Assembly: GCF_026210795.1 (NCBI RefSeq) | Contig: NC_089442.1 | Coordinates: forward strand, 4,058,501-4,122,500 | Reading direction: 5' to 3' | Length of the DNA: 64,000 bases | From: Rhizophagus irregularis | Lineage: Eukaryota; Glomeromycota; Glomeromycetes; Glomerales; Glomeraceae | Shown here: positions 1 to 50,026 of the stretch, piece after piece | Layout of the letters: every line of letters begins with the position of its first letter | Numbering within the stretch: position 1 is the first letter of the stretch | Notes under the pieces: model-generated | What the model was told of the DNA's origin: nothing | Seen by the model: the letters and a program-made list of their open reading frames with translations, nothing else | The model's database searches: none | Made by a program: the position numbers and the translations under genes

Positions 1-44
1 AAGTCTTTTTATTAATTCTAAATTTTTAACTAATTTGTTTTTAG

Positions 45-24094: not shown

Positions 24095-27000
24095 CTAACT
24101 CTTCTTTAACAAAGCCGGTTTATGTTTTCTTAAACTTTCTGCCACCCCAGTGAAATGATTAACTAAATTAACTTCATTAACAGTACGAGTAAACTGACAT
24201 CGTAGAGCTCCAGATGAAGTATTTGCAGGATGATAAGATTGTGCAATCTTCGCCATTTCTTCTAAAGAATTACTTTGTGATTCACTGCTAAATAGTACCG
24301 TATAAAGATATAACGGAGATCTGAAATTTTCAAAGATAACTCGGTTTAATTAAAAAAAATAAATTTTCTTTATTTTAGAAAAAAACAAAATAAATAAAAT
24401 AATAAATTACCCCCTCGTTTTATTTTGATTACAAATAGTATGAAGTTGATTTGCTGGAACACCGCATAGTCCATCGGATAAGAAGATAACGATATTTGCT
24501 CTAAAAAAAAATCATTATATTGAATGAGTAATGAGTACCTATATTTTTAACCTACAAAATTTCAAACTATTACTTTGAATTATCAAAATATTTTGTAATC
24601 AAAAATCCAGCTTTCTGAATCGCAAGATCAAAACTTGTTCCGCCGCGAGCTTGGTGTTGGAGCATTGAATTTAACAAATCTTTTGGATCTGTTAAATCTC
24701 GATTTTCAAATGGAACAGTAACCTGCCATTTATTGATTTACTTTAGTAATAAAAACAAATATGAATTAAATTCAAATATAAAATTAGAAACCTCATGGTC
24801 AAATAAGATTAACGAAACACTATCACGCATAGCTGATGACAATTGATTTTGATTTGCCCTTGCAGAATTTATACGTGCTTCCATAAATTGATATACCTAT
24901 ATTAAAAAATTTACTTGTTTAAAATTAAGAAAGGTCTTGCAAAATCATATACTTAATATTACCGCTTGATAAACTGCACCAGTCCTATTATTATGATTTC
25001 GTATTAAATTGTTGTAAATTGGAAAGTTTGGAATTGGCCTCTTGTCATTGTAACTCATAGACCCCGAACGATCCAATGCAAAAATAATATGAAAAGCGGC
25101 TTCACGTGTACTTGGATTTTCACAATTAAAATGATGTCCATCTAAAGATATATACCCATAACCGTTTGGAGGATTTGAACTTGGACTGAGCGGAGCATGA
25201 AAAAGTTGTAATTCGCAAAATGATTTAGTTGGAGGAGGAGCACTTGATCCTTGAGATTTATGATGCTTTTCATCGGGGCATTCATGATCACATTTTGTAA
25301 ATTCTTGTTGTTCTTGAACAGTATAAGGATCTAATATCAAGTAAATATATTAATTAATAAATTATAAATACACGTATTAAAATAATTAATAGATACTAAA
25401 AATATTTTTTAATATGCACCTTTGAAACCTGTTCGCTCCCAGAAAAGTTTGTGAGATATAAAATCTTTCGGTTTCTCGGGATTAGGTTGTACTTTTTCTA
25501 AAATTCATTAGATCGTTAATAAATAACAGATAATTAGACAGTAACCTAAAAAAGTGTTATAATTACCATTAATATGTTGTATATCTTGCCCTTGCCCTTG
25601 GTTTCCTGATTTGCAATTTTCCTCGTTTTTGCAGTAATCAATATGACGATGTCTACCTAAATCTTTACAATGCTAATATAGAGAAAAGACAAATTATTTT
25701 AAAGGAAAATAATTGTAATATAAATAATTTAGAAATTTATATAATACTTGCCAAATTGCAGAGAACAAATGTTCCTTGATCACCAACTCTCAATTTATGG
25801 CTAATAATTGAATAATATTTAATAAAAAAAACAAGACATCATGTCTGATAGATTTTCTTTTAATGTTTGATATTTCATACCCTGCATATTCAAATTCACT
25901 ATCTTCTCCTGTGAATTCAGTTTGAGTCATATTTCCATGTCTCGTTTCATGAGTTTGTTGTGCGTGGCCATATGGTAATGTACACTAATGTTAGAAATTG
26001 TTAATTATGATTAAAAAAAAGAAAAAAAAATATGAAATAAATATAAAATTGCGTAATACACACATAATATTCACAGAATTTACACTGTGCATTACAATAA
26101 TGAAATCCATTTTCCTTATGCGTATGTGTTCCAGTATGTGTAAATTCATTAGGAGGAATCTTTTTATTACATTTTAATCTTTCACTTAATTGAATATACT
26201 ATTACAATAGAATATACAAGAATTAATACATTTTTATATTATACATTAATAACTTTATACGCTCTAAATTATACCTTTGTAAATGTAATAGAAGTTTCCT
26301 TGACTAAACCCTTATAAGTTTCTTCCTGCTTTTTAGGTTCAGTCACTACTTGACATATACCATCATCTTGACAATCTTCACGACATTGATGCTCATTACT
26401 TTAATAATCAAAAGATTTTCTTTAATTAATAACATTTTAAAGAAAAAAGAAAAGATTACAATAATACATACCCACAAAAATGATTAACCTGTAAGTCGGA
26501 AAAGGCATGAAAATGATCATCACTTTGACACCTTTCCTTGCAATTTGGAATTGGACATTGAATTGGACAAATTGGGTTTTCACAACGATGCGAATCATGC
26601 TCTTCTTCGTATGGTTTAATACATTTATTCGGACATTGGTAATCTTCATCTTGTGTATGTGTTGATAACGAACAATCTTTTCCACAATAATGAATTGTTG
26701 ATTGACATAAATGTTCACTGTCATCATGTCCGATTTCCTTTGAACAAACTTTCTGACAATTGCGCTTGTCATCAAGACTACATGGTTTACCACATAAATG
26801 GCTTATTTTGTCACAAGCATGTTTTCCTTCATGTCCAGCTTTGTGACTGCATTTCGGGATTAAATTGTCGTTATGGGCTTCAGTAAAGTGACAAAAAAAA
26901 TGACACTTATGATCGGTTAAACAGTCATGATTTTCTTTGTGATCCCGATTTTTGACACATTTCAAACCACATTGATGGCATGTTAATCCACACAAAGTCC

Positions 27001-30000
27001 ATAGGAGTGTGAGCTTGCTTAATTCTTGCTCCATTGCATACTTTCCATTAACAACATCATTATTATCTTGTGGAAATTTAGCAGTATTTTTCACATACCA
27101 ATTTTGAACACGCAAAACGCGACGTTCAATAATATATCTAAAGAATTTTTCAAAATTAGCAAACCACTCTCTATCATTAGATGATTCTTTTCGTGGTTGC
27201 ACATAATCTTCAAAATAACATCTTAAATCTTCAGAAAGTCGTTCGAAAGACTCGTGTTCGTCATATAACTGGATATCAGAATCTGGTAATATTTTAGTAG
27301 ATCCTTCGTAGTCACTTAAAATATCAGATAGGATGACAATTTGATCATCAATTGGTTCTCCAGAATCGCGATCCTATTGAAAAAAGAATAACATAAATAA
27401 TTCAATTTACATATTTCAATACAAGCAAAAACGTGTTACCATAAGTTGTTCGTTAACAGAATCTTTCTGCTCCAAACCATAAGCAACAACGGTTGGAAGT
27501 AATCTTTTTAGGGTTGCAACACGAATCTGTATAAGATTTTCGTCCAATGAACCCCAATCGCATATCTGAAGTATACATATACAAATTAATAATTTTTATA
27601 TCATTATTATTTCGTTAGATGTTATATAAAATCTACAAACCTTCAATTTAGCCATAATTACTTTCGTATTTTGCAAAAAAGTCCTAGCATTTTCATATTT
27701 TGCTTCTTGCTTATCCAACTTCTTATTAACTTTTGATAAGGTTTTAAACCATGATGCATCATTAAACATTGGCCAAGGAATAATGTCTAGTCCCCCTTTG
27801 TACATTCTTGAAATAAAGTTGTCTTCACCCTCCTAAAACATTATAATAAAATAAAATGAATGAAATGACCTTCCCCCCAAAAAACAATATTATAGTAATA
27901 AATATACCTCCGAAACCAATTGACTAAATTTTAACCTGAATTCTCTAACAATGTCTTCTTTGTCAGCACTAGGAACATCTTTTATAATGATACAAAGTTT
28001 TGCCTAAATAATCAATAAAAATATTAATAAACTAAATTTTTTTTACGGTTCAAGTCTAAACAATATTGTACCTGAAATATTTTTGAATCTGACTCAAACA
28101 GCGTCGCGCCATCTTGAAATCTTTGAAACATTGTCGACATGTCTCTATTTACTGCAAATTGATTCTGTTTTAAATTTTCAATTATGTTAACAAAATGTAT
28201 AAAGAACTAATGATTATTATAATAATAAAAAAATTATATTTAACCTTAAAAAGAATAAGATTTGACACAACTGTATTGAAGAGTGTTAAAAATAAATCTA
28301 ATATGTATTTACATGTAAGAAATTATTATTATTATAATATTATAATGAACACTTCAAAAAACATATATGTATAAATAATTACCTTCTTGCGGAGTTCTCT
28401 CGAGGGATTTTAAACCCTCAAAGTCGAGTGCAACATAAATATATTTCTTTGTATTTACTGAAAGATAAAAAAGTTTAATTTATGTTCTCAATTAAAATAT
28501 ATAAATACTTTTAAATTTACCTAACGACATCCATACACCTTCGGTGCAACGCTAAAAATTAAATTTAATTTAATAATTTTTAAGAGAAACATTAATCTGA
28601 TAATAATTAAAATTTACCATTGCAGAACCGTCAAATGTAGTTCCGACAAGATGATTTAGCATGAACGATTTTCCGCATGATTGCTCACCCATACTAGAAA
28701 CAACTTTAACTTTTTTATCGCCAAAGTGCTTGAAAATTCCTTCATACCATCCAAAAGAAATATTCTTGGCTATACCATCTACATGGAGACCATAACCATC
28801 ATCACCATCATCGTCAAGTCCAACATGATCATCATTCGAGGATAATCCATCTCTAAGTGGCTGAAACAAGTTATTTCTTGCTACAGCAATTTGGATAGGA
28901 ATTAAACAACATAGTTGAATGATCCACTCTCCTAATTGACATTTTGCTGAAAATTTCTTCTGAAATTTTGCATTTTCGACATCAAGCTTTTGAAATGTGA
29001 TAACGGATGTAGTAAATTCCTCTAATATTGATGTTGGTTTTTTTGTAGAACGCTTTAAATTCTTGAACATTTCAATAATATAGTCTTCAAACTTCTCGCC
29101 ATATTTTTCAATATCATTATCGACATCTAGTACTATTTTTAAACTAAGAGGACGGTTCTGTTCGGGATCAATACAACTCTCCACTGGATATCTCTCAAAC
29201 ATTAATCCGTAAGCATCGATAAGACCATTAAGCTTTGTCTTAGGTTCAATACGGAATTCCATCCATTTGTCAAATCCATTTTTTTGTTTAAAATTTCCAT
29301 CAATTTTTAACTCTGTATCAGAAAGAACTTCAAGAACACTATATTTTTCTCCCAAAATTACAATATGTTCTCCATTTTGAACAATTTTCTCAAAGCGAGT
29401 ATTCTTTCCTTCAATAATAGTATACTTAAAGTTTTTGTGAGAGACTTTAACGAGTCCAAGCGATTGTTTTTGTACGCGTTCTTGGAAACGATATTGAGTT
29501 CTCTCTACAGTAATTTTTACTATTATCGAATTAAAACATCCATTTTCCAAATCCAATGACATCAAGTGGGTTTGTAGTTTATTTATACAAGTGAATTGTA
29601 AGTATTCTAAGGATTGAATAGTTGGCGGTAAATCGATAACTATAAACATAAGAATAGAAATAATTAAATATTAATCTAATAATTTCAAAGCATTGTATAA
29701 GTGAATATTAAAATTTAATCGCAAACCTTTACTAACTGAACTTCCAAAATTTGTACAAAAATAAACATATGCACGGCATATCTCCTTAAGATCGCTTCCT
29801 CTATTAGTAGAATCCTGTTCATCATCGGTTAAATTGTCTTCCTCATCGGTTTCATTTTCGTCATTAGTAGAGTTTTTGACTTTTATTTTTTCTTTCACAA
29901 ACGCTACAATACAAGAACCATCTGGAGAACTTAAAACATTTGCTGTATTTGGTGGAAGGTTACAAACTGCCGGCCGAAATTGCTGATTTACAAGGTTGAA

Positions 30001-33000
30001 TATACGTGCACGACCACCTTTTTCAACGAAACACAGATCTTCGGTGTCCTGAATAAACAAGAAATATTGAATATCCGGAACCGCACCACTATACCATTGT
30101 AATAACTGGATGTTTGAATTTCGCGAGTATAAATTTGCTTGACCATCATTGAAAGAAAAAACGTTTAACTAATTTAAAAAGATGATAAATAGAAATTAAT
30201 TTCATGAGATTTAGAATTATAAAACCGTAAAACTTCGAAACTTACCACCACTTTCCTTGTATCAAATATAGCAATTAACTCTTTGGATTCATTTACTGCA
30301 ATAAAATAATTTTCATCCATATTTAATGTCTTAAATGGCCTATTTGAATAAGATTGTTTGAAATTTTGTGCTAGTTTCTGAGCAGTATCAAAGAATATTT
30401 CAGTTTTTGATGCTCTTTTGTTCCATAAAACAAGAAGGAATTTATGATTATCAAATTGTGATATTTTCCTATAACCAATATATTATTAGATTTTCCTTTC
30501 ATATTAAAACTAAAATTAAGGTAATAATCTTCTTACCTAAAGTCATAGACTTGAGGATCAAGATGAAATGATTGTCCACGACTATAATGAGAAGGTAAAG
30601 TTGGGTTTGGAACATGTAATTCATCTTCTTGAAGTTGAAGGATATCTGCCTGTTCTAACGATGTTTCATAAATTGTTATCTGTAGTTGATTTGGTTGAGT
30701 TGTTTCAATTTCATGATAGAAGCGATATCCGTTTGAAAACAAACTTTCAGAAACTAATAATAGTAAAATGAAAATAAACAAAATATAAATACACGTGCTT
30801 AATATATATTCAAGTTGATAAATTATTACCTGATATATTTCGTATATTTAGTCGCATAGACCTATATTACGTAATTTTTTATATGAGTAATATATAAAGG
30901 TAATGACAATTTAGCAACTAATGAATTAGGACTTATTTACCCATCTTGATATTTTTCTTCTATGACATTACAAATTCTGTCAAATTCGAAATCCTCAATT
31001 TCTTGTTTCTCTTGTTCAAATTCTTTGGTTAATCTTTCTGATAATTGTTTATTGAAAGAAACTCTTGGCAAAATTTCCTTAATGTTACTAGGAAAAGTAT
31101 TCTTTCTCCAATTTTGGTATTCTTCAAAGAAAATACCCAGAATTTTTTGTTTGATATCATTAAATTTTCCAAAAAACGGTGAATTGGCAAGATCTTGTAC
31201 AAATTTTTTATCCGACATGGTTTTGGATATTTTAATCGACTCCTCATCTGCACGATTAATGCTTGAACTAGAAAAAGTTATAATATCCAAAAAAGCCGTA
31301 AACAAATTAGAGATCCCTGAAAAAACTCCAGATGATTGTGGTTTCTCAGTATGTTTTTTTACTAATTTATGTGTATCAGTTTCTTCATCTACGAACATAT
31401 TATAAAAAATCTCTATTGTAGCTTCTTCATTGCTTTTCCCAGCATTTTTAGTCATTTTAAATATATCAACAACAATTATCGAAGTTAGTGCATATCGTTT
31501 CTTTAGTTTACCCCAAGCTTTGGAATTAATTAAAATTTTTTTATCAATTTGAGCTTCCATGTCAGGATATTTTCTACGAATTCTTTCTAAATCTAAATTC
31601 ATAATTGATTAATAAAATACATAAAATAGTTGCATAACATCGAAGACTTTAAATATATTTAATATATTACCTTCATCACTTATATGCTCATGTTCGGAAG
31701 ATTCTTGACCAATAAAATCTTCAAAAGGACTACAAAAAATAATACGAATTAATACTCAAATAAAATTAGAAATGGTAAAAACGACAAATACCTATAACTA
31801 TCGCGTAATTTTTTCCATGCCAAATTTGAAATGATCTCAATATCTTTACTTGTTTCGTCTTTTTCTTGGTCCTTCTTTTTATCATATTTCATCTTCGCAG
31901 CAGCTATTGCATTACGCAATGGACCTAAAAGCTCATCTTCCATTTTTAATCCATGTTTAATTAAAATCTCTAATGATTTCATGTTCATTGTTTCACGATT
32001 AATATGTAAATTCCGCCCTTTTAATCTTGTTTGTAGTTCTCGTTGAAAATCAAACGCAGTAAAGATTGGCGCAGCCGAGCGTAATTGAGAAGCTGTCTTT
32101 ATCAATTGTCGAGTAACAAACGATTGGTTTGTGGCCGATTCCACAACTAAATATAATAGATCAAATTAAAAAAATTTTTAAACCTCAAAGAAGCTACCTC
32201 CACTTTTTTTAAAAAAATTAAATACCAATTGGATATAAAGGTATATCATCTTGAATATTATTATTTATCTCGGTTTTGATTTTATCAGATAAATTCACCT
32301 TAATATGATGATTCATAAATTAGTTATTTTACAGGAAAAAATTTATTGCTACTATTAAACGTAATTAGTTTAAATCAAAACCTCGAAGCCCGGGTAGATT
32401 TTGAAGTCTTCTTGTTCCTCTTGACTTTTTTTGACTTCAAACTCATAACATGTGTCATCATCATCATCTGAATCAACATCAGAATTGTCCTTATTCCATT
32501 CAAAACTTTCCAAGTCTTTATCGCTCATGAGACAAAGTTGATGGTCAGTAAGCTTCGTCAAATATCTATAGTGTTTGAACAACGTCAATTATATATATCG
32601 ATTAGATCGTAACGAGACTTTGATGAAACGGATATAATTACCTATGTAGGTTGGTCATATTCTTCTTACGTTGCGAAGAAGCATTTTCTTCGTAACATCC
32701 TATTTCAGGCCAATGAACAACTAAACCCAGGTCTGGGTTAACCAGTAACAAGTATAAACCAGGACGTAAGAAAGATTTATCCATGGAAGATTGTGAATTA
32801 GCAAGCAAGTCATATCTATAAAATAAAATTAATAATTAATTACAACTGATGATTTTTTTTTAAAGAAAAAAAATATATATATATTTACATTTCTTTATTT
32901 ATTATTTTTTTACTTAATAAAAGTTTTGCTATTAAAATATGATTTCCATAACATCCAATAAGGCGAAGCGAAATCGTATTCAACTTCGTAAAGTTAATAT

Positions 33001-34103: not shown

Positions 34104-35372
34104 GGCGATAAAATTTTAAACCGACTTATAATAATGACGGTTAAAAAAAATTCTGTTAAAGGGACTAAATTTATATTGAATTTTTTTTTTATCTCCGAAC
34201 TCCGGAATCTTAAATTGATAATTACTAAAATCATTTCCGTAAAAGGTATCTGAAAAGGAGTAAAATTAGTTTTAAAATAAGAAAATTTAGCATCGTTGCA
34301 CCTGTAGAATTGCTTCATTTGGGGAACTGAATAACTGTTATATTTAAAAGTTTTACTATTGTTCGAAATAACCCAAAATGTTCTAATTAGCTATTAAAAC
34401 CGGTTGGTATCTTGGTTCTTATCAATCATTCTAATAAATTAAAATGGATGACAAGTTTCTCAATGAAAATAAAGTTTCTATTCATGATTTTATAAGACAA
34501 AATAAATTTAGATCAGTATCGTCATTGTATTACCATCATTGTCGTACCGTAATTGTTTCCAGATAAGGCAATTTTATGAAAATTATTTCTAATTATTGGT
34601 TCTTTGTTTTTTAAATAATAATCTTTTGCATAATAAATTGTAGATAAAGTTTATAGTCTATATTGATAAGCGTTCGAAATTGATAATGGTTTAAAATTAT
34701 TGAGCTCTAGTGGTGTACTAATAAACAATTCATCACGTTTTATGCCGGGTATTAAAAAAATTTTAGGAAGAAATTTTTTGTTTTTTTTTGAAGTATTCTA
34801 GATGGATGCTAAAACAAATTAAACATTTATATTACAGTCCCTGGCGAAAATAATGGCAGCGAGAATGCCGCTTCTTAATTTGGTCATAACTTCATTACTA
34901 TCCCGATTAGATTAATATTTGTTATACCAAATTGAATAATGGAATGATCATTAAAAAAGCAATAAAAAAAAGTAATTTCAAATATTGCCCCATAACAATT
35001 AAATCTGTTAACTTTTTCTTGAAGGAAATTTTTAATTCAACTGGAAATTTTTTGCATTTATGGAAGCAATACATCCTACTTTTAAAAATTCTTAATATTT
35101 ATTATTCTAAATGTCACAAGTGACGATCATTTCTCATTTTTTAATTTTTCGTTGAGAAAACCTTGGAATACGTGTATTTTTGACTAACCAAATAATTTTC
35201 TAGACTATTGATTTGCTTATTATTATAATAAATATATAAAATAATAGGTTCCATAATGTTTGAGGTGGTATGGAAATATATCTTTCAATAATGTGTTCTT
35301 CTTGTCCATTTTAAAGCCAAGTTATAATGTAAATTTTGGATTTTTTTGAAGCAAGATACAGATGAATATTAA
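34104..35372. other. Spacer upstream of copy C
   Basis: There is no gene. It holds a TATAAAT on the minus strand at 34168-34174, about 65-70 bases before the copy C ATG, and a Tc1/mariner-like terminus at 34835 (separate entry). The remainder is AT-rich. Confidence 0.5.
34835..35110 (+). mobile_element. Possible Tc1/mariner-like element end
   Basis: CAGTCCCTGGCGAAAATAAT follows a TA dinucleotide (34833-34834). Tc1-type elements often start CAGT..(T/G)GGC(A/G)AAAATAATGG next to TA. Subterminal text resembles such elements, but no transposase or second end is seen here. Confidence 0.4.
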
Positions 35373-35961
35373 TTGCCGATCCGCCTAAAAACGGCACTGC
35401 GTTACTAATAAAATTCGGGGATAATAGCGATAATAAAAAAAAAGCATTTTTTGCATCTCGCGCGCGAAATAAGTTTCACCCATTTTACAAACAGAAATAT
35501 CATAAAAACAATATTTTCTTTCATTTTATGACAAGTCATATTTGCCAAAAAATTTTATAATTATATTTCTGTAACTGGTTTTCTTCAACTTTCACTTGTT
35601 TTTAATAATAAAAATATTTTAAAAAAGCTTTTAAAACCAACTTTAGAAGCTAAAAATTATAGGTTTTTATTGTAAATAATGCAATATAGTAAAATGAAAT
35701 ATTGAAATTTCGTATATTTTAAGGTGTAAATCTGACGCGCGCGCATAGTAAACTCATTATTTTGCATACGAATGTATAACTTTTTTTTGCAAATTCGTTT
35801 TTTTCAAATATTTTTTCAGTATATCATATGATTTTTTTTTTATAGTCAATATGTCATCTATGAGAAATCCTTTTTTGAAGTTTGTGTTCTTAGCACAAAA
35901 TCGGCAAATTTAACCCCGAATTTTATTAGTAACGCAGTGCCGATTTTAGGCGGATCGGCAA
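35373..35961. mobile_element. MITE with about 48-bp inverted ends flanked by TTAA
   Basis: Ends 35373-35420 and 35914-35961 are reverse complements with one mismatch, starting TTGCCGATCCGCCTAAAA. Each side is flanked by TTAA (35369-35372 and 35962-35965), the target site of piggyBac-type elements, although the terminal bases are not the usual piggyBac CCY. The inside contains a second inverted pair built around CGCGCGCG (about 35460 and 35740). It has no coding capacity. Confidence 0.7.
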
Positions 35962-35996
35962 TTAAACAGAGAATTTCGTTTACTTATGATATGCGT

Positions 35997-36611
35997 TGTA
36001 ACACCTGAGCCCATAGAGAATTATGTTTGCCACCTCAGGTATTAACAAAATGACTCTTTATTAATAATTTAAATAAATACAATAATATGCTTGGTTTAAT
36101 AACATTAAATAATAAAATAAATAATTCATAACAAAATTCGTCCAATTTCTCTCTCTGTCCTTTCCAAAAGGTGATCTTCACGCCCTTTTATGTTTGTTTT
36201 TGTGTAACTAAATTCATAATTTCGATTCATGGATTTAAATTATTAAAGTATTTCCATTGTTTTAAAGTATTTCCATTATCTTAATTTTGTATCCATTTGA
36301 TCATCATGAACTCCTGAATTATGATTTATAATATTAACGTAGTGATCAACAAATTAATCACTTGACACCTCAGATCACTTGATTTCATCCAATTTAGTAT
36401 CTTTCGGATCTTCATTTATCCTTGAATCTCGTGACTAATAGTTTAAGGTCATCACAGACCAATTATCCTTGATTCTCATGACTAATAGTTTAACGACTTT
36501 TCGGTCCAATTAAAATAAAAATAAAAATAAGTTAAAATTTTATACACTAAGACTAAATGTAATACTGCGCCCCACAATTAATAAATTTACTAGGTATACT
36601 ACGGCATTACA
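35997..36611 (-). repeat. 3' LTR of the Ty3/Gypsy element
   Basis: 615 bp, same length and apparently the same sequence as the copy at 45871-46485. It ends in the TG...CA rule bases. Confidence 0.93.
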
Positions 36612-36642
36612 ACTATCCCGCATAAAAATTTAATGCCCACAT

Positions 36643-36714
36643 TAAATTTATTCTAAGAATCGAACTCGTGTCTCGAAGTGGTAGGTGCGAATTATACCAC
36701 TAAATCAAACATGC
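36643..36714 (-). pseudogene. Degenerate tRNA-Gly-like sequence inside the retrotransposon
   Basis: On the minus strand it starts GCATGTTTGATTTAGTGG, followed by an anticodon-loop-like CTACCAC, and later GAGTTCGATTCTT. A-box (TGATTTAGTGG) and B-box (GTTCGATTC) promoter motifs are clear, and the layout is that of tRNA-Gly. The anticodon stem and the 3' acceptor strand do not pair, so it is not a working tRNA. It lies between the integrase stop and the 3' LTR. Confidence 0.55.
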
Positions 36715-36951
36715 ATTGTCACTTGACTCAGTTGCGTTTTAAATATTCCTTTTTGCTGCGTCTACATCTGCGGTTTATCATGTGTTTGTTAAGTTTCACG
36801 GTTTTCCTCCCCGTACCGGATTTCACTTCGGTCTTTCTTAGGAAATTTTCATTAGTTTTTCCTATTTTCGAAAATTATTTTTATGTCATGTGATTTTATT
36901 TCACATGATTATAAATTATCTTTATTTTTCTAAGTCCGTTGATGATAGTTA

Positions 36952-38131
36952 TCATTTACTCATCGGTGTATGGTAAGTCTTTAATAATTCTCCATTTACA
37001 GGTATCTTCTTGATGACACCTTTAATATTTTTAATTCTATAAGCTCCATTCGGTAGTATTTCATGAATGTAAAATGGTCCCAACCATTTTGATTCTAATT
37101 TTCCCGATAGTTGTTGTGCTTTGGCTTTATCATAGAGTAGTATTTTATCTCCAATTCCAAAGGTGTGTTCTTTGATTATTTTTCTGTCATGATACTCTCT
37201 TTTGTTTTGTTTGAGATTTCAGTATTTGTTCTTTGGCTTCATGTCAGATTTTTGGTAGTTCTTCTAATAATCCAACTATTCTATCACTTAGGTTAATTTC
37301 TTTGATATTTTCATCCATTATTGTCCGTACATTTCTTCCGTATGTTAAATAAAATGGTCGAATTCTTGTTGAACTATGCTTTTTATTTCGGTAAGCAAAT
37401 AATATGGGTGCTATCCTTTGATCCCAATCATCTTTGGTTGATAATTTTGCTAATGCTTGACCTAATGTTCGGTTGAATCTTTCAACAAGTCCGTTTGTCT
37501 CTGGATGATAACTTGTAGAAAAATTCCATTTAATTTTGAATTTTTCCATTAATTCCTTAATCATTTCATTATTGAAATGACTTCCTCTATCACTCAATAT
37601 TTTCATTGGACATCCATAGTCTACAAATGATGTCTTCATAAATAAATTTTGATACTTCTTTGGCAGTTGCTTCCTTTACTGCTTTGGCTTCTGGCCATTT
37701 TGTAAAATAATCCATTGCTACTATGATGTATTTATTACCATTTGTTGTCGTGTTCAATGGTCCAACAAAGTCAATCCCGATTTGATACCATGGTTCTACT
37801 ACTTTAATTGGGTGTAATTCATTTTTCCCTTGTGGTTTTCCTCTTCTTCGACATTCATCGCATGTCCTTACATATCTTTCAACATCATTCAGCATATTTT
37901 CCCAATAATATTTATCTTTTAAATTATCATAAGTACTTTTGATTCCCATATGTGCCGATAATTCATGACTGTGAGCTAAATATAGTGCTCCCATCTTTTC
38001 AAAGTCTTCTATTATTCTGATGTTTTTACCATTTTTCTCAATATGCTTTTTACCATCAGTTACTCTGATGTTATCCTTAATCTCAACATTTTTAACCTCT
38101 ATTGGTGGTTTATCTCTATCTAATTCTATTA
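36952..38131 (-). pseudogene. Ty3/Gypsy integrase (frameshifted)
   Basis: It joins the viral-type cDNA to host DNA. Visible in order: the HHCC zinc finger (HSHELSAHMG ... CDECRRRGK), the first catalytic Asp in GIDFVGPL, the second in ILSDRGSHF, the Glu in YHPETNGLVERFNRTL, and the C-terminal GPY/F-type module (ESKWLGPFYIHEILPNGAYRI) ending MSK then TGA at 36952. The frame changes near 37625, between the first and second Asp, and again near 37244, before the C-terminal module. Upstream it is in the same frame as, and fused to, the kinase-like domain. Confidence 0.85.
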
Positions 38132-38735
38132 TTTTATTATATACTCTTTCCCAATCTGCGTCATTATTTGATATTTTAATATTAGCATATTTTTCTCCTT
38201 CGTAAATATCTTGACATTCTTTAAATGATTTCACCATCTCCATATATCTTTCTTCATCTAATAATGGGTATGATGTTTTATGTCCTTGATCCTTTTTCGA
38301 ATATTCTCTACCTTTGTAATTTTCCCAACATTTTTCATTTTCTAAAAATATCACTATTGATTCATCAATTATCCTTTTGCTCCTAAATACTTCCTTTTCT
38401 AATAGGTGGTTCTCATATCTTGTTATGTATCCTCTGTCGAATGATGGTGTTTGTTGATAAAAGTACTCACTATAGGGACTTTTATCTAATATTAACCAAT
38501 CCTCATTATCATGTTCTTCCATTCTTCTGTTGATTTGTTCGACAACTTCCTTCGAATTCCCATTCTATACGCCTTTCTTTGGTATTTTGTACTTATCATT
38601 GTCCTCTCTTCTCCTTTTAAAGGTGTTAAACCTCACACTTTGTCCTACTTTTTCAAATTCTTTTATAAGTTTATTTACAATGAATGTTTTTCCAGTACCA
38701 TCAACTCCACATATGATTATTATTTTAGGTCCCAT
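38132..38735 (-). pseudogene. Thymidylate-kinase-like P-loop domain inserted between RNase H and integrase
   Basis: From the ATG at 38733-38735 the frame reads MGPKIIIICGVDGTGKTFIV, with the Walker A GVDGTGKT at residues 10-17 in the form typical of dTMP kinases (GxDGxGKS/T), then helix and VRFNTF. An in-frame TAG (38565-38567) interrupts after about 56 codons. The same frame then continues through DWLILDKSPYSEYFYQQ, like the DRxPxSExxY segment of phage and cellular nucleotide kinases, and IDESIVIFLENEKCWENYKGRE, like the FL...R lid region, to LDEERYMEMVKSFKECQDIY. About 200 codons matches the usual dTMP kinase size. The domain runs straight into the integrase. The ATG overlaps the stop of the preceding small ORF. 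It might phosphorylate nucleotides for cDNA synthesis; that is inference. Confidence 0.72.
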
Positions 38736-38964
38736 TTTTACATAATTCTGATAATTTTAGCTTGTTTACTTTACTTAATATCACCTCTATTTGTAATATT
38801 TCCTCTTGAGTTTCCAATATTAATGGTCTTTCTTCACTATCTTCAAAATTTTTGGCTTTGAATTTATAGTTATAATTTATCCTGTTTAATTCCTTTGTTA
38901 TACCTTCTAAATTTTCGATTATATCCTTTATTTTATGATTTGTATTTCTTACCACTTGTTCCAT
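38725..38964 (-). CDS. Small helical ORF after RNase H in the Ty3/Gypsy element
   Basis: About 79 codons, starting MEQVVRNTNHKIKDIIENLE, rich in Lys, Glu and Leu and probably helical. It lies in a different frame from both the RNase H ORF and the kinase-like domain. Its stop overlaps the ATG of the latter (ATGGGACCTAA). It may be a linker of a once continuous Pol. I do not recognise a family. Confidence 0.45.
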   Translation of the reverse strand: MEQVVRNTNHKIKDIIENLEGITKELNRINYNYKFKAKNFEDSEERPLILETQEEILQIEVILSKVNKLKLSELCKNGT

Positions 38965-39005
38965 TCTTATTTTTGAAAAGTAACTCTTTTACCCATCTAT
39001 TTATA

Positions 39006-40187
39006 TTATTCTTGATAAGGCATCTGCGTTTTTATTTTCTTTTCCGGTCTATGGGTTATTTCAAAATCATACTGTTCCAATTCCACGACCCATCTTGATC
39101 TCTTTCCTTTCGGTACTTTTGCAGTCATTAATCCCTTCAAAGCTGCATGGTCTGTTACTACCTCAAATTTTCTATTGATCAAGTATTTATGGAAATGTTG
39201 TATTCCCCATACAATTGCATAACATTCTTGTTCGGTTATTGGCCATCTCTGTTCTGTCCCGTTTAAACTTTTACTGGCATATTCTATTACGTATTCTTGA
39301 CCTTTATCATCTTTTTGAGCCAACACTGCCCCTAATCCTATTCCTGAAGCATCTGTAATTAATATAAATTTCCTTAACCAATCTGGTTGTCTCAACACCG
39401 GTTCTTCGGTTAATTTCCTTTTTAATATTTCTAATGCTTCATGTTGTTTGATGCCCCATTCAAACTTTTCATCTTTTCTCAATAAAGATGTTATTGGTTT
39501 TACTATTTTTGAAAAATCTTTAATAAATTTTCTATAATACGTACATAACCCTAATATTGACCTTACACCTTTTATATTTATAGGTGCTGTTAATTTTTGT
39601 ATCTTTTCAACCTTTCCTGGACTTGGTTTTAATCCATTTTTACCAACTACATGTCCTAGAAATTCTATTTCTGTTTTTCCAAATATACATTTCTTTAACT
39701 TTAGTATTAAACTGGCTTCCTCTAATTTTTCTAACACTAACTTTATGTGTTTTAGGTGGTCTTCAAAATTTTCCGAATATATCATTATATCATCAATGTA
39801 TACTATCACAAATTCATTTAGGTACTCTTTTAATACTTTATCCATTAACCTTTGAAAACTTGCAGGCGCATTTGTTAACCCAAATGGCATGACATTATAT
39901 TCATATAATCCTGCTGAGCATATGAATACTGTTTTCTCAATATCTTCCTCAGCCATTTCTATCTGATTAAACCCCGATGCTAAATCTAGACTGGTAAACC
40001 ATTTTCCTGAACTTATCCTTTCTAATTGTTCATCAATCCTCGGTAATGGATATGCATCTGTTATTGTAACTTTATTTAATTTTCTATAGTCGATGCAAAA
40101 TCTATAATTTCCCGACTTTTTCCCTGCTAAAGTCACTGGTGAAGACCATGGACTTCTAGATTCTCTAATTTTTCCCAATTTTAACAT
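39006..40187 (-). CDS. Ty3/Gypsy reverse transcriptase and RNase H
   Basis: It copies the element RNA into DNA and degrades the template. A 393-codon open frame starts in RT: RESRSPWSSPV, then FCIDYRKLNKVT, SLDLASGFNQI, VMPFGLTNAPASFQ, the catalytic YIDD at residues 130-133, and FLGHVV. It continues into RNase H with TDASGIGLGAVLAQ, the Glu of ITEQECYAIVWG and the Asp of VTDHAALKGL. The frame is lost just after HRPEK near 39045, where another frame carries the usual NADALSR ending. The N-terminal fingers region lies upstream in another frame (about 40200-40480), so the start given here is only the first in-frame Met. Confidence 0.92.
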   Translation of the reverse strand: MLKLGKIRESRSPWSSPVTLAGKKSGNYRFCIDYRKLNKVTITDAYPLPRIDEQLERISSGKWFTSLDLASGFNQIEMAEEDIEKTVFICSAGLYEYNVMPFGLTNAPASFQRLMDKVLKEYLNEFVIVYIDDIMIYSENFEDHLKHIKLVLEKLEEASLILKLKKCIFGKTEIEFLGHVVGKNGLKPSPGKVEKIQKLTAPINIKGVRSILGLCTYYRKFIKDFSKIVKPITSLLRKDEKFEWGIKQHEALEILKRKLTEEPVLRQPDWLRKFILITDASGIGLGAVLAQKDDKGQEYVIEYASKSLNGTEQRWPITEQECYAIVWGIQHFHKYLINRKFEVVTDHAALKGLMTAKVPKGKRSRWVVELEQYDFEITHRPEKKIKTQMPYQE

Positions 40188-40476
40188 CTCGTCAACCTCT
40201 TTTCTGATGAATTTACCTTTTTCATCATTTTCTTTGTACCCTTTCTTTGGGCTATTGGTTCAGTACCCCCTTTTAATCTGATTTCATGTTTTACTAGGTT
40301 TGTCCTATTATATTTTTCACCATCGTACTCAAATATATCCTTATATTTTTCTACTAATACCTTTAATTTACCTTTTTGTTCATTGGTTATGTCCCCTACT
40401 TTAAATTTTTCAGTAAATTTTTCATGGTCACTTTTGTGCTTCTTTATCGTCTCTTCAGTATCATTCTGACCAAGAC

Positions 40477-40884
40477 TTATACTTTAAAATTTTCATCTTC
40501 CTGACCTTCATGGTCATCTTCATATATGTTATACAATTCATCCTGGTATAATTCTTCTAATATTTCCTCTTCATCAAATGTTTCTTCAAACCCTTTAATG
40601 GTCCTTTGTGTGTATTTTACTGGTATATCCATAGTTTCATCATTCATTCTAATTATTATTGTTTTATCTGTGTAATCTATATTTGCTTTGAACATATCTA
40701 ATACCCCATTTCCTAACACAATTTCGTTTTTTCCTGAATCAATTACTTCAACCTTAATGGGTATTTCCTTATCCCCAAATTGTATGTATATTGTCGTGGT
40801 ACCCCTAGATGCTAATTTATCCTCATTTATCATCACACATCTTACTGTACTTGGTTCCTCGATTTTTAGGTCCATTTCATCCAT
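40477..40884 (-). pseudogene. Ty3/Gypsy retropepsin-like protease, active site frameshifted
   Basis: Protease-fold residues such as GTTTIYIQFGDKEIPIKVEV and EIVLGNGVLDMFKANIDY match the body of a retropepsin. The active-site segment should lie just upstream at about 40895-40925. There the frame shifts by one base within the expected catalytic triplet region, so a complete D(S/T)G is not read. The C-terminus is acidic. Confidence 0.65.
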
Positions 40885-41037
40885 TATCTGACTAGTTATT
40901 ACATTTACTGCTGCTCTCTATCAAACATTACGTCCTTTAATTCTTGGTTTATTATTAATTTACCCCTTAATGCAGTTAAGTGTTCTGCTTCAATGTTGTT
41001 CATTGATTCTTGTAGTCAATCTGTTTGTGATACCTTC

Positions 41038-41379
41038 TCATTCCTTCATAATATATTTTTCTTTGTTTCGCTCATATCTATAATTTGTGAAAAAGTTGCA
41101 TTTGCTCGTACTTTTCATATCCTCTAATACATTATATTTTGGTATATTTCTTTGAAATGCGCTTGTCCTATGAATACCTTCAACACGTTCATTTTTACAT
41201 TGTTTTGCATAGTGACCTCTTCGTCCACAATTTCCACACGTATTATTATTTCTCCTTCGCTTCTGTGCTTTCCTCAGACTTTCATCAGTGAATCCTCTTT
41301 TTGGTAATGCTGCTGCCCTTTCCTCTTGGCTTGCATATTTATTATTCCTTCTTCGTGCTTGTTCTTGGTCAATTTCCAT
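41038..41379 (-). CDS. Ty3/Gypsy nucleocapsid-like ORF with CCHC zinc knuckle
   Basis: It binds element RNA. It contains CGNCGRRGHYAKQC, a C-x2-C-x4-H-x4-C knuckle, preceded by a basic arginine/asparagine tract and followed by a tail of unknown role. A second knuckle (CYNCKQPGHYANEC) lies in another frame at about 41729-41771, so the element once encoded two. Confidence 0.75.
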   Translation of the reverse strand: MEIDQEQARRRNNKYASQEERAAALPKRGFTDESLRKAQKRRRNNNTCGNCGRRGHYAKQCKNERVEGIHRTSAFQRNIPKYNVLEDMKSTSKCNFFTNYRYERNKEKYIMKE

Positions 41380-41801
41380 ATCTATATCTCGATTACTTGA
41401 CCTATTTTTTATGTTACTTCTCGTTTATTTTTCCCCAGTATAAAAATCTTGATCAACATGGTTAAACGTTACATCATTATCTTCGATAATACGGGTCGTC
41501 ATAACTATATCCTTGGTCATAATTATCCTGATAATCCTGACTATCATAATCATATTGGTCATATTGGTCATTATAATTATCATATTCCACTACATTGAAT
41601 CCTCGATTATTGTTTTGGTGGTTTGGTGGTCTGTTATAGTTATTTGGTCTTCCATTATAGTTATTTGATCTTCTATTATAATTTTGATTATTTGGTCTTC
41701 CATAATTTCTTTGACCATTATTTACCCTACATTCATTTGCATAATGTCCTGGTTGTTTACAATTATAACATGCTACGATGCTATTCTTTGGTTTATTATT
41801 A

Positions 41802-42392
41802 TTATTGCGGTCTCTTTCTCCTCCAAGCTTGATTTACTAGTTTTACCTCTAATTTTTTAAACATGTCGGCAAGGTCATCCTCATAATTTTTCTCCAATGG
41901 TTTTTCAAATATATTCTTTGGCTTGTCGTCTTGTATATCGATTCCTTTTCTTTGGGTATTAATTGGTATATTAAGTGTTTTTCTCATTAATTCATTAGTA
42001 GCTTCCTCTTCTCTCCTTGCTGTATTTACTGCATCATTTAAATTTGCTGGGTTTTGTCTTCTGACTTGATATCCCAATGTTGGTGTTAATCCTTCGATAT
42101 AATTATCCACTTGTAATTCATCATCTAATGCATGGCCTCTGGTAGCTATCCTTAATATTTGCCTGAACCTTGTCGTATATGCTTCAACATTTTCATTTAC
42201 TCCTTGTGTTATTTTCCTTAATTCTAACATTTTCCTTTTTCTAACATCTTCCCTGGTAAATCTTTGTTTAATCCTATGTTTTAAATCATTATCATTATCG
42301 TTATCTTGCCAATTTACCAAATGACCATTGTTTGCTTCCTTCTTTTCATTATACCATTGTGCTGCTGCACCTTTCAAACAGGTAGCTGCCAT
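41802..42392 (-). CDS. Ty3/Gypsy Gag capsid domain
   Basis: About 196 codons, opening MAATCLKGAAAQWYNEKK and followed by LKHRIKQRFTREDVRKRKMLELRKITQG and VEAYTTRFRQIL. This is the retrotransposon Gag capsid pattern (AA..L.G.A..WY, then the YxxxFxxL-type helix). It forms the particle shell. The frame upstream (42374-43726) carries the earlier part of the same domain (DWVRQFETAFTAIG), so a frameshift near 42385 splits it. Confidence 0.85.
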   Translation of the reverse strand: MAATCLKGAAAQWYNEKKEANNGHLVNWQDNDNDNDLKHRIKQRFTREDVRKRKMLELRKITQGVNENVEAYTTRFRQILRIATRGHALDDELQVDNYIEGLTPTLGYQVRRQNPANLNDAVNTARREEEATNELMRKTLNIPINTQRKGIDIQDDKPKNIFEKPLEKNYEDDLADMFKKLEVKLVNQAWRRKRPQ

Positions 42393-43726
42393 TGCTGCTT
42401 GTCAGCTCCATTTACTCCTGCTGCTTTTCCTATAGCAGTAAATGCTGTTTCAAATTGTCTTACCCAATCGTTTATGTCTTCTTCTTCCCTTCCATAAAAT
42501 TGTGGCATACTAATTATTCCTCCAGCTACATTTCCTGCATCCTCAATTGCATTTGCTAATGGGTTGGCTGCGACTAATCCAGCCCAATTACCTCCTATAT
42601 CATGTCCCGTTGCTGCTAGTAAAGCCGCTCTAAAATCTTCCCTTACTTCAGCTCTTGTTGCTCCCATAATTATTGGTACTATTGGTGGGATTGGTGGTAT
42701 CGGTGGTGTTAAAGGCGTTTCAAATAAATTTTCTATATTATAATCAGATATTTCGCTTTTATCCTCAGAATTTGATTCTGAACTTTCACTTGAGTCAAAA
42801 CCAGGTCTATTTATAATGTTTTCTTCATAAGGTTCTTCAAAATTTTCATTGTTATCACTTTCATTTGGATTTAAAATTTCTCCATCTTTTCCAGATCCAT
42901 CTGATTTATTTTCAGACCCACCCGATTCTTCATCATCAGATTTATTTCCACTACTTTCACTATCCTCAATTCCAGCTTGCTGTTTTAGAAATTTATCTAA
43001 TATTCGCCTTAAATTTTTCTCCATTTCATTTTTATTTCCTTGGAATATTTCAATAAATTCTTGATCCAATATTTCTCCATCAGTATATCCCATACTGATT
43101 AACCTCAATAACTCTCCATTAGTTATTCCTATTTTATTATCATCACATATTTGTTTTAATCTTTTAACCCCGATATCAATTTCATTTTCGTCATTTTCAC
43201 AATCCCTACACTTGGTTTTTCCTTCGTCAAATTTATTGTTTATCCATCTTATTCCACATTCATTACAAAATGTGGTATTTTCATTTATCCATTCATATAA
43301 TTTTATCCTTAATTCTTTGTCATTCGTATCAATTTCCTGGAAATATTTTTCCATAAATTCCATTGTTAATATTATACTATTGCTTATCCTGAATTTTCTC
43401 ATTCTTTCTATTTCTGACACATTTAATTCGTATCCTAATTTTTCTAAGTCATCCTTTAATTCTAATAATTCTTTTTGTTCACAATTTTTACATTGTCCAA
43501 TGTCTGCTATCATATCAGGTAACTTTCTATTTCTACAATTTCCACATCTCAATGTTTCTTTTGTTAACCATTCATTTATTTCATCTTTTAATTTTTCATC
43601 ACTTAGTCTCATTAATTCGAAAAATGTACCTAAAAAGTCTTCTGTTAATATCAATTCTATCCTTATCCTTAGGTCCCCACATTCTTTGTATATCCTTGTC
43701 AGTGAACCTTCCACCCATTTCTTCAA
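42374..43726 (-). CDS. Gag extension with repeated zinc-ribbon modules
   Basis: About 450 codons. The first half contains an internal repeat of about 110 residues. A helical block (LTEDFLGTFFELM, LTMEFMEKYFQEI, LDQEFIEIFQGN) is followed by EW(L/I) and then two CxxC pairs (CGNC...CKNC, and CNEC...CRDC). The second half is acidic and Ser/Asn-rich, then PPIPPIPPIVPI, then the start of the capsid domain. The frame begins at a TTG overlapping the previous stop (TTGA), so it is probably reached from the upstream ORF by frameshift or was once joined to it. I know no named family for the repeats. Confidence 0.6.
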   Translation of the reverse strand: MKKWVEGSLTRIYKECGDLRIRIELILTEDFLGTFFELMRLSDEKLKDEINEWLTKETLRCGNCRNRKLPDMIADIGQCKNCEQKELLELKDDLEKLGYELNVSEIERMRKFRISNSIILTMEFMEKYFQEIDTNDKELRIKLYEWINENTTFCNECGIRWINNKFDEGKTKCRDCENDENEIDIGVKRLKQICDDNKIGITNGELLRLISMGYTDGEILDQEFIEIFQGNKNEMEKNLRRILDKFLKQQAGIEDSESSGNKSDDEESGGSENKSDGSGKDGEILNPNESDNNENFEEPYEENIINRPGFDSSESSESNSEDKSEISDYNIENLFETPLTPPIPPIPPIVPIIMGATRAEVREDFRAALLAATGHDIGGNWAGLVAANPLANAIEDAGNVAGGIISMPQFYGREEEDINDWVRQFETAFTAIGKAAGVNGADKQQWQLPV

Positions 43727-44598
43727 TTTTTCTTTTTAATGATTCCATCCGTCCATTCGACATCATCCTCTATTTTTATTTCATAATGTATACTACCATC
43801 ACTGTCCTCTAATTCATAACTTTCAGGACTATCACTTTCTGGGTCCTCAGGTTCCCTTGTAAATTGTTTGGTATCAATAAATCTTTGTCTTACTTTTGAT
43901 ACATATCTTATCCATGCATCACCTCCTTCTTGCGTGTCTGTCTCACATCTATTCTGATATTCTATCTGGAGTAATAATTCAATTACCTCTTCTTTCCTCA
44001 ACAGATCTTCTGTTTCTTCATATAATAGATCCCTGAATAACTTCATTGCTAACTTCTTAACATGTATTGCTTTCATTTCATTTTCCAATATCGTGTTATA
44101 CCAATCCCAAAATTTTTGAAATCTATTTTCAACATCCCAATCTTCTAAAATGTATCCATGTTCCATTATTTCTGGACATCCAATTAATCGATCAAATACT
44201 TCATTTTCTAAGTCTCCTTCAATACAATCCCTTACAATTACTACAATTATTATTCTCAATCCTTTTTCTTTCATTTTTGGTTGTTGTCTGTACCTTATTG
44301 ATTCAATTATTCTATCTACTATATTCCTACATTTTCCTTTATGTATTGTGTCCTCCCTTTCTCTATTGTCCATACTTAATAAATTCAACAATTCTTTATG
44401 TGTCACATTATTGTACATTAGTATTGTATCCTCAAATTTAAATAAAGCATCCCAAAATTTCTTGAATGCTGCCGATACTTCTCTTTCTATTGGGTTACAT
44501 ATTTCACATGCTAAACATTCCTCTGGTTCTATCACTCCTAGGTCATGTTCTTGTTTATGGTTTATATATCCAGCATTCCAAACATGGTACCATTCCAT
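43723..44598 (-). CDS. First ORF of the Ty3/Gypsy element, unidentified
   Basis: 291 codons from an ATG at 44596-44598, starting MEWYHVWNAGYINHKQEHD. An early CLACEIC pair may bind metal. The rest is helical with an acidic C-terminus (EDPESDSPESYELED). It ends with a stop that overlaps the next frame. It is the most 5' coding part of the element, in the place of Gag, but I recognise no family. Confidence 0.55.
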   Translation of the reverse strand: MEWYHVWNAGYINHKQEHDLGVIEPEECLACEICNPIEREVSAAFKKFWDALFKFEDTILMYNNVTHKELLNLLSMDNREREDTIHKGKCRNIVDRIIESIRYRQQPKMKEKGLRIIIVVIVRDCIEGDLENEVFDRLIGCPEIMEHGYILEDWDVENRFQKFWDWYNTILENEMKAIHVKKLAMKLFRDLLYEETEDLLRKEEVIELLLQIEYQNRCETDTQEGGDAWIRYVSKVRQRFIDTKQFTREPEDPESDSPESYELEDSDGSIHYEIKIEDDVEWTDGIIKKKN

Positions 44599-45122
44599 TT
44601 TTAATAAAATTCTCTAAAAATTTTCGCGTCTTTTACTTTTTATCCTTCTTTTATATTTTATTTGACCTATACTGGGCTTGCCTTTACCTCATTTGTTCAT
44701 TACTGAGTATGGTAGTTTACAGGTTTGTACAAATAAATTTATATTCCATAAAATTTTCCAACCTAAGGTTGAAGTGTGAATCCATATTTGATTTGTCCGA
44801 TTATTTGTTGTATTTCCAAGACTGATGTATCTTTCCTCGGTGTCAACAATTCATTTAATAAGTGGGAGATTCAAATCTCCCTCTTTCATATGCTCCTACT
44901 ACGCCTCTAATTCTATTATATCTTAAAATTTACTGTGCTTTGATAATCTTTAATTAATAATCTCGACACCTGTATTGACATTTTATATAATTTTACTACG
45001 CTACAAAATCTCTTATCATTTATATCCTTATTAATTTTTTAATAACTTTCCTTGAATATATTTGTCCAGCAAACATTATTTTAATTTTTGTTAACGTTAA
45101 TCATGATTTTTCTTGGGTACCC

Positions 45123-45267
45123 TCACACAGAATTGTTTTTGGAAGTTCACACAGAACTATTCTCAATTGATCACACAGAATACCTCAATTGAGTTCACAC
45201 AGAAAAAGCTCACACAGAACTATTCTCAATCGATCACACAGAAAACCTCAATTGAGTTCACACAGAA
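45123..45267 (-). repeat. Seven copies of a 10-mer in the retrotransposon leader
   Basis: TCACACAGAA (element strand TTCTGTGTGA) begins at 45123, 45147, 45171, 45195, 45210, 45234 and 45258. Spacing is 24 bases except for one 15-base step. The units between contain CTCAATTGA variants, and a 63-base piece is duplicated. The repeats lie in the untranslated leader upstream of the first ORF and may be an RNA or transcription control region. Confidence 0.85.
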
Positions 45268-45764
45268 TTACCCTACCATCGTATTTATAGTGTCGGTTTT
45301 TGGGTACACTTTTTATCCTTAACTTAACCTCAATTATTTATAAAAATTATTTTTAATCCTTAATTCATGGAACTTATTTACAATATTCTATTAAAACCCC
45401 TTCTAACTTGATTAGCCTCGCATTTCCCTTGATAATTAATTACTACCATGCATATTTGATTCATATGCATGGAAATTATTGTAATAATAATTTTTCATTG
45501 ACATATCAGCCGGTGGTCAAGTTAGATCAAAAATTATAATTTATGAACATTATTATATTTTTTTTTTTATACATTTATGGTCATACTTACCCAAATTAAT
45601 ACCTTTTACCCTGGTAACCATTATTTTCACGTATCCTTTAAAATATTTGACTTTATTTTATTAAAATTTAACGTTAATACACCTTAAATTCTTTTTAACC
45701 AAGACTTAGGACTTTTACTTTTATAATTCCTTAACTTCGTCGATCCTTTATTTGTAACTTCTAA

Positions 45765-45842
45765 TGATCACGTGGGGGTGATCATTTTCTTTTCTCAGAG
45801 ATCCTGTACTTATAACCTGTAGTGATCATGTGAGGATGATCA
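45765..45842. repeat. Duplicated TGATCA hairpins next to the 5' LTR
   Basis: TGATCACGTGGGGGTGATCA (45765-45784) and TGATCATGTGAGGATGATCA (45823-45842) are two related short hairpins. They sit in a roughly 58-base direct repeat that also includes CTTTTCTC(A/G)GAG. They lie just downstream of the primer binding site in the element leader, where packaging or dimer signals are common; the role is inference. Confidence 0.6.
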
Positions 45843-45850
45843 CTTTTCCT

Positions 45851-45868
45851 TTCTCGGAGCATGCACCA
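45851..45868 (-). promoter_or_regulatory. Primer binding site of the Ty3/Gypsy element
   Basis: Two bases inside the 5' LTR the element strand reads TGGTGCATGCTCCGAGAA, beginning with TGG as required to pair with a tRNA 3' CCA. It predicts a primer tRNA ending ...TTCTCGGAGCATGCACCA, so its acceptor stem would start GCATGCT. That fits a glycine-type tRNA (compare the relic at 36643-36714), but the match is inference. Confidence 0.6.
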
Positions 45869-45870
45869 CT

Positions 45871-46485
45871 TGTAACACCTGAGCCCATAGAGAATTATGT
45901 TTGCCACCTCAGGTATTAACAAAATGACTCTTTATTAATAATTTAAATAAATACAATAATATGCTTGGTTTAATAACATTAAATAATAAAATAAATAATT
46001 CATAACAAAATTCGTCCAATTTCTCTCTCTGTCCTTTCCAAAAGGTGATCTTCACGCCCTTTTATGTTTGTTTTTGTGTAACTAAATTCATAATTTCGAT
46101 TCATGGATTTAAATTATTAAAGTATTTCCATTGTTTTAAAGTATTTCCATTATCTTAATTTTGTATCCATTTGATCATCATGAACTCCTGAATTATGATT
46201 TATAATATTAACGTAGTGATCAACAAATTAATCACTTGACACCTCAGATCACTTGATTTCATCCAATTTAGTATCTTTCGGATCTTCATTTATCCTTGAA
46301 TCTCGTGACTAATAGTTTAAGGTCATCACAGACCAATTATCCTTGATTCTCATGACTAATAGTTTAACGACTTTTCGGTCCAATTAAAATAAAAATAAAA
46401 ATAAGTTAAAATTTTATACACTAAGACTAAATGTAATACTGCGCCCCACAATTAATAAATTTACTAGGTATACTACGGCATTACA
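45871..46485 (-). repeat. 5' LTR of the Ty3/Gypsy element
   Basis: 615 bp direct repeat of 35997-36611. The element leader begins at 45870 and runs leftward, starting with AG and then the primer binding site TGGTGCATGCTCCGAGAA. Confidence 0.93.

Positions 46486-50026
<3,541 letters not shown>

What the first reader, a model, noticed from the sequence alone, without database searches (positions are those of the whole stretch)
38132..38735. A thymidylate-kinase-like domain inside the Pol of a Ty3/Gypsy retrotransposon
Between RNase H and integrase, in frame with the integrase, sits a domain of about 200 codons. It has a dTMP-kinase-type P-loop (GVDGTGKT, residues 10-17), a DKSPYSEYFY segment like the DRxPxSExxY of nucleotide kinases, and an FLE...GRE lid-like region. 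Retroelements with dUTPase are known; I know of none with a nucleoside-monophosphate kinase. It could raise local dTTP for cDNA synthesis in a non-dividing hypha.
Basis: partly seen in the sequence, partly recalled or inferred. Interest (0 to 1): 0.88.

Follow-up and report, generated by a model that had tools for sequence, protein, structure and literature searches.

The report
Nucleotide-kinase domain in fungal retrotransposon polymerase
Several families of jumping genes in mycorrhizal fungi carry, fused to their copying enzyme or integrase, a well-kept enzyme domain that looks like one that makes DNA building blocks, which suggests that they help to feed their own DNA synthesis.

Summary
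On the minus strand at 38735-38091, between RNase H and integrase of a Ty3/Gypsy element (LTRs 35997-36611 and 45871-46485), sits a P-loop kinase domain. The window copy is broken (TAG at 38567-38565). The host genome (Rhizophagus irregularis by its named matches) holds at least 151 matches to it. In three families it is fused to RT-RNase H; in the window's family it shares a frame with integrase.

Best reading: a captured nucleotide kinase that helps to supply dNTPs to reverse transcription. Fold, architecture and selection are shown; substrate (dTMP, other dNMP or nucleoside) and role are inferred.

The parts
38091..38735 (-). nucleotide-kinase-fold domain of Pol (window copy interrupted by a stop)
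   Evidence: translation; profile matches of relatives; structure of relative P0006; 96.3% identical to the open copy L002 over 215 aa
38685..38708 (-). P-loop GVDGTGKT (residues 10-17)
   Evidence: Lys unchanged in all 42 aligned rows, 41 distinct copies
38565..38567 (-). TAG stop, codon 57, that interrupts the domain in this copy
38457..38486 (-). DKSPYSEYFY motif (residues 84-93), at the place of the TMPK DR / dNK ER-S motif (recalled)
   Evidence: D, K, S, P, Y unchanged in all 42 rows
38304..38348 (-). FLE...W.NY.GRE lid-like segment (residues 130-144)
   Evidence: L, E, W, N, Y, R, E unchanged in all 42 rows
38725..38988 (-). short open frame between RNase H and kinase, no convincing Pfam match
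39006..40259 (-). reverse transcriptase and RNase H
   Evidence: Pfam RVT_1 9.9e-41, RT_RNaseH 3.5e-36
40477..40917 (-). protease region (by alignment to copy L009)
   Evidence: Pfam protease on the L009 frame
41038..44613 (-). gag region, broken into several frames in this copy
   Evidence: Ty3_capsid on the gag of another family, L016; the frame 43726-44613 alone has no Pfam match
36952..38090 (-). integrase, broken into three frames in this copy
   Evidence: open in L009
35997..36611 (-). 3' LTR, 615 bp, identical to the 5' LTR
45871..46485 (-). 5' LTR, 615 bp
35993..35996 (.). target-site duplication GCGT (left)
46486..46489 (.). target-site duplication GCGT (right)

Best explanation
A group of Ty3/Gypsy LTR retrotransposons of Glomeraceae carries a captured P-loop nucleotide kinase of the thymidylate-kinase / deoxynucleoside-kinase fold as part of Pol, between RNase H and integrase. 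In three of the four main families it is fused to the C-terminus of RT-RNase H, with or without a 60-aa linker. Shown: place, fold of a relative, conserved catalytic-type residues, purifying selection, movement between families as a module. Inferred: it is an active kinase, most likely on deoxynucleoside monophosphates (dTMP or a broader set), packed with the reverse transcriptase in the particle, where it tops up the dNTP precursors that limit cDNA synthesis in hyphae whose nuclei seldom replicate.
Against: No activity or expression data. The match to PF02223 is below its cut-off for the window's family (21.3 v 27 bits) and above it for P0006 (28.9), where KTI12, NTPase_1, MeaB and cobW profiles also pass their cut-offs; the only TIGR00041 score shown is 16 bits against a cut-off of 83. 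PDB sequence search matched the N-terminal, P-loop part only, FtsY first. The TMPK Arg of the DR motif (recalled) is Lys. TMPK and dNK tie structurally, and the profile alignment to the genome's dNK is better than to its TMPK. A few relatives have changed motifs: P-loop Lys to Glu in P0001, DKL for DKS in P0082 and P0109, P-loop Gly changed in L010 and L020. The window copy itself is broken.
Confidence: 0.62

Rival explanations
1. It is a deoxynucleoside (salvage) kinase: it phosphorylates dT, dC or purine deoxynucleosides rather than monophosphates.
Against: PF01712 found in only 3 of 20 relatives, best 3e-4, against 16 of 20 for Thymidylate_kin, best 3e-7; the position aligned with the dNK catalytic Glu (recalled) is Asn, followed by a basic KRRR run; GVDGxGK is TMPK-like (recalled).
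Confidence: 0.2
2. It is a P-loop enzyme with another job, for example end-phosphorylation of RNA or cDNA, or an NTP-driven step in particle assembly or integration.
For: AAA_28 and KTI12 profiles match 17 and 15 of 20 relatives, KTI12 above its cut-off on P0006; it sits next to integrase.
Against: The 50 rows shown by VIA-align are TMK, dCK, dGK and AbmG nucleotide or nucleoside kinases; families not listed are not excluded by that.
Confidence: 0.11
3. It is a catalytically idle structural or linker domain of Pol.
For: A few copies and relatives have altered P-loops (G to E in L010, G to R in L020; Lys to Glu in P0001).
Against: P-loop Lys, DKSPY and RE unchanged in 41 distinct copies and omega 0.088; a related copy does without the domain.
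Confidence: 0.05
4. Chance similarity, an assembly artefact or a host gene fragment inside one copy.
For: The window copy is interrupted.
Against: Many long open frames in several families, and relatives named from four species; confident kinase fold.
Confidence: 0.02

Closest known systems
dUTPase-bearing Ty3/Gypsy elements of fungi (PosPlaTy3 of Postia placenta, Tmt1 of Tuber) and rotifers (Juno, Vesta), and dUTPase retroviruses
   Same: a nucleotide-metabolism enzyme built into Pol of LTR retroelements at varying positions (PMC2864245 and PMC5408684, passages); help in non-dividing cells has been assumed for dUTPase viruses (PMC2864245)
   Different: here a P-loop kinase, not a dUTPase; no dUTPase matched in the frames that were scanned
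Thymidylate kinase family (PF02223, TIGR00041, phrog_761)
   Same: fold, P-loop GxDGxGK, whole-domain match to phrog_761
   Different: below the curated cut-off in the window's family; DK in place of DR (recalled motif); domain of a retroelement Pol
Deoxynucleoside kinases (PF01712; dCK, dGK, Giardia dAK)
   Same: fold, [DE][RK]SxYS-like motif (recalled)
   Different: weak profile match; Asn aligned with the catalytic Glu (recalled)
Bdelloid rotifer LTR elements with captured DEDDy exonuclease or GDSL esterase ORF3
   Same: enzymatic modules thought to be exchanged between retroelements rather than freshly taken from the host (PMC5408684, passages)
   Different: those are separate ORF3s and other enzymes; here a Pol domain

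Membership tests
Ty3/Gypsy LTR retrotransposon | LTRs with target-site duplication, capsid, protease, RT-RNase H, integrase in the order PR-RT-RH-IN | tested here: met
   window: LTRs and GCGT, RT-RNase H and integrase zinc domain; copies: Ty3_capsid, protease, RVT_1, RT_RNaseH, rve
Thymidylate kinase | TMPK-type fold over the whole domain | tested here: met
Thymidylate kinase | curated profile cut-off (PF02223 27 bits; TIGR00041 83 bits) | tested here: inconclusive
   P0006 28.9 bits, over PF02223, L002 21.3, under; TIGR00041 matches 19 of 20 at E<=0.01, but the only score shown is 16 bits
Thymidylate kinase | Asp-Arg (DR) motif binding the dTMP phosphate (recalled) | tested here: not met
   Asp-Lys in all 42 rows, 41 distinct copies
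Thymidylate kinase | phosphorylates dTMP | not testable with these tools
   no assay
Deoxynucleoside kinase | PF01712 profile | tested here: not met
   3 of 20 relatives at E<=0.01, best 3e-4; not among the rows shown for P0006, P0070 or P0014 at E<=0.01, while the genome's own dNK scores 1.2e-31
Deoxynucleoside kinase | catalytic Glu after strand 2 (recalled) | tested here: inconclusive
   Asn at the aligned place, in an alignment of remote proteins
dUTPase retroelement | dUTPase domain | tested here: not met
   no PF00692 at E<=0.001 in the frames scanned: L016 (all four), L009 (protease and RT), L026 (gag, RT-kinase, integrase, not protease), L022 (RT-kinase)

The most novel reading that the evidence does not exclude
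A self-provisioning reverse transcriptase: the RT-RNase H polypeptide carries its own nucleotide kinase, so dNTP precursor phosphorylation is physically tied to cDNA synthesis, and the kinase circulates as an exchangeable cassette among Ty3/Gypsy families of mycorrhizal fungi.
Probability: 0.5. Interest if true: 0.87.

Novelty: new variant of a known kind. Interest (0 to 1): 0.78.

Why it matters
Retroelements are thought to live on the host's dNTP pool; dUTPase is the known exception and only cleans the pool (recalled). A kinase under purifying selection inside Pol would be a retroelement that helps to make its substrate. It gives a testable case for dNTP limitation of retrotransposition, and the cassette exchange gives a natural comparison between families with and without it.

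Tried and rejected
Chance or artefact: rejected by the open copies. A recently captured host thymidylate kinase: the host TMPK aligns only over 107 columns, and the genome's own dNK is 22% identical to P0006 over 164 aa. No close cellular donor was found: the profile search gave 138 proteins at E<=1, 120 of them listed, all at E 4e-35 or better; the Nudix-kinase protein P0112 is the only listed row with a Nudix domain. That search needs shared 5-residue words, so remoter kin may be missed. Phage donor: tblastn of P0006 against phage records gave no match. Viral contigs: two scans, 81 and 3 pattern matches, none confirmed. PDB by sequence: P-loop part only. Searches read other strands or frames and gave nothing.

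Prior art, searches of the held open-access library: thymidylate kinase + retrotransposon + gypsy 0 papers; retrotransposon + Rhizophagus irregularis + integrase + gypsy 6; nucleotide kinase + retrotransposon + reverse transcriptase + domain 3; LTR retrotransposon + dUTPase + additional domain 4; retrotransposon + Rhizophagus irregularis + transposable elements + gypsy + long-read 15; deoxynucleoside kinase + retrotransposon 3; LTR retrotransposons + dUTPase + fungi + Ty3 8, 6 listed; retroelement + thymidine kinase + pol + captured + transposon 5. Judged by title and start of abstract, none announces such a domain. Passages found by term in eight of these papers: the word kinase does not occur in PMC6380549, PMC2864245, PMC6431247, PMC5408684 and PMC2774666; in PMC8647823 the kinase passages shown are about protein kinases, P-loop 0; PMC11075540 thymidylate 0, P-loop 0, one protein kinase; PMC11105155 thymidylate 0. 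Most subscription journals are not held.

Full report
Setting. The window lies in a 147-Mb fungal genome of 32 contigs; named matches point to Rhizophagus irregularis, Glomeromycota, Glomeraceae. A complete Ty3/Gypsy insertion occupies 35997-46485 on the minus strand: 615-bp LTRs identical to each other and a GCGT duplication.

The domain. The integrase is also broken into pieces in this copy.

Copies. One search found 151 matches in the host genome (150 of 165 candidates scored, list cut). I aligned 42 rows of the domain, 41 distinct copies, the window's included. Most fall in four families; L014 and L044-L046 lie between them. A: the window's family, 600-aa kinase-integrase frame, RT-RNase H in a separate 493-aa frame. 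B (777 aa), D (779 aa) and C (704-706 aa): kinase at the C-terminus of RT-RNase H in one frame, a stop, then integrase. Between RNase H and kinase, B and D have a linker of about 60 aa and C has almost none. Of 90 RT relatives scored (of 363 candidates) 88 have the kinase within 1.5 kb downstream. Many other Gypsy frames of the genome, found by an RNase H profile, do not coincide with kinase matches (compared by eye).

Selection. Codon models give omega 0.088 for the kinase (39 sequences, 199 codons), 0.036 for RT (21 sequences) and 0.075 for integrase (26 sequences). Pairwise dN/dS of the kinase lies at 0.04-0.20 in the 17 of 18 pairs where dS could be computed. Only stop-free copies entered these estimates.

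A cassette. Families B and D share RT and integrase, but D's kinase belongs with C. DNA identity of D to C is 84-93% over most of the kinase block (73% at its last window) against 46-80% upstream and 50-71% downstream of it, while RT and integrase are mostly closer to B. AU tests: RT rejects D with C (p 0.005), integrase likewise (0.0017), kinase rejects D with B (0.010) (17 copies each). A further family (L053, L054; RT 56-61% identical to the others) ends its RNase H frame at NADAMSRLI. In L053 no kinase follows: its DNA aligns with B up to the end of RNase H (82%) and again just after the kinase stop (73%), with 77 bp in place of 884; downstream of RT, L054 was not examined. Whether that family never had the cassette or lost it is open.

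Distribution. Glomus cerebriforme is in Glomeraceae too. One metagenome protein has the kinase fused to a Nudix domain (P0112, 44% identical); in the host genome only its kinase part is matched over its length, apart from one decayed copy starting a little earlier.

Mechanism. Shown: architecture, fold of a relative, constraint, modular exchange. Inferred: that it is catalytically active, acts on deoxynucleotides, and supplies the reverse transcriptase. The closest precedent is dUTPase in fungal and rotifer Gypsy elements (PMC2864245, PMC5408684; passages); PMC2864245 cites the assumption that dUTPase lets viruses replicate in non-dividing cells. The Lys in place of the TMPK Arg, and Asn aligned with the dNK catalytic Glu (recalled motifs), suggest a kinase somewhat apart from both.

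Novelty. My eight searches of the held library brought up no report of such a domain in a retroelement, judged by listings and passages. I rate it a new variant of a known kind: a retroelement with a nucleotide-metabolism module, of a new enzyme class.

Noticed in passing
35997-46485: The two LTRs are identical, yet the aligned 8.6 kb differs from copy L009 by 157 mismatches and 34 gap openings and the frames are broken: most of these changes probably predate insertion, so a defective parent was probably moved in trans (inference; LTR gene conversion is an alternative).
   Followed up: partly
L016:6458-6600, L053:2092-2230: Between kinase (or RNase H) and integrase lies a short stretch conserved at protein level in another frame, in a copy with and one without the kinase; in L009 and L016 gag and protease are separated by a single stop. 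Suggests recoding or splicing in Pol.
   Followed up: no
P0112 (metagenome protein): A Nudix domain fused to a 44% identical relative of this kinase; its contig was not seen.
   Followed up: partly
35369-35965: A MITE-like element with 56-nt terminal inverted repeats, 96% complementary, just beside the insertion.
   Followed up: no
13203-19803 and 24102-30706; 20-4370 inverted: Tandem duplication with a spacing of about 11 kb, 76% identical, and a third, inverted partial copy; of four of its frames scanned, one has a Pfam match, below cut-off (URGCP_GTPase).
   Followed up: no
45119-45267: Short tandem repeats with CACACAGAA between the 5' LTR and gag.
   Followed up: no
L033 (G000:C24:3288271): A host thymidylate-kinase-like gene whose P-loop reads GCEDTNTT, besides a normal-looking host TMPK on C13.
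   Followed up: no
L029 (G000:C28:1224005): A 336-aa frame with a good deoxynucleoside kinase domain and an N-terminal extension.
   Followed up: partly
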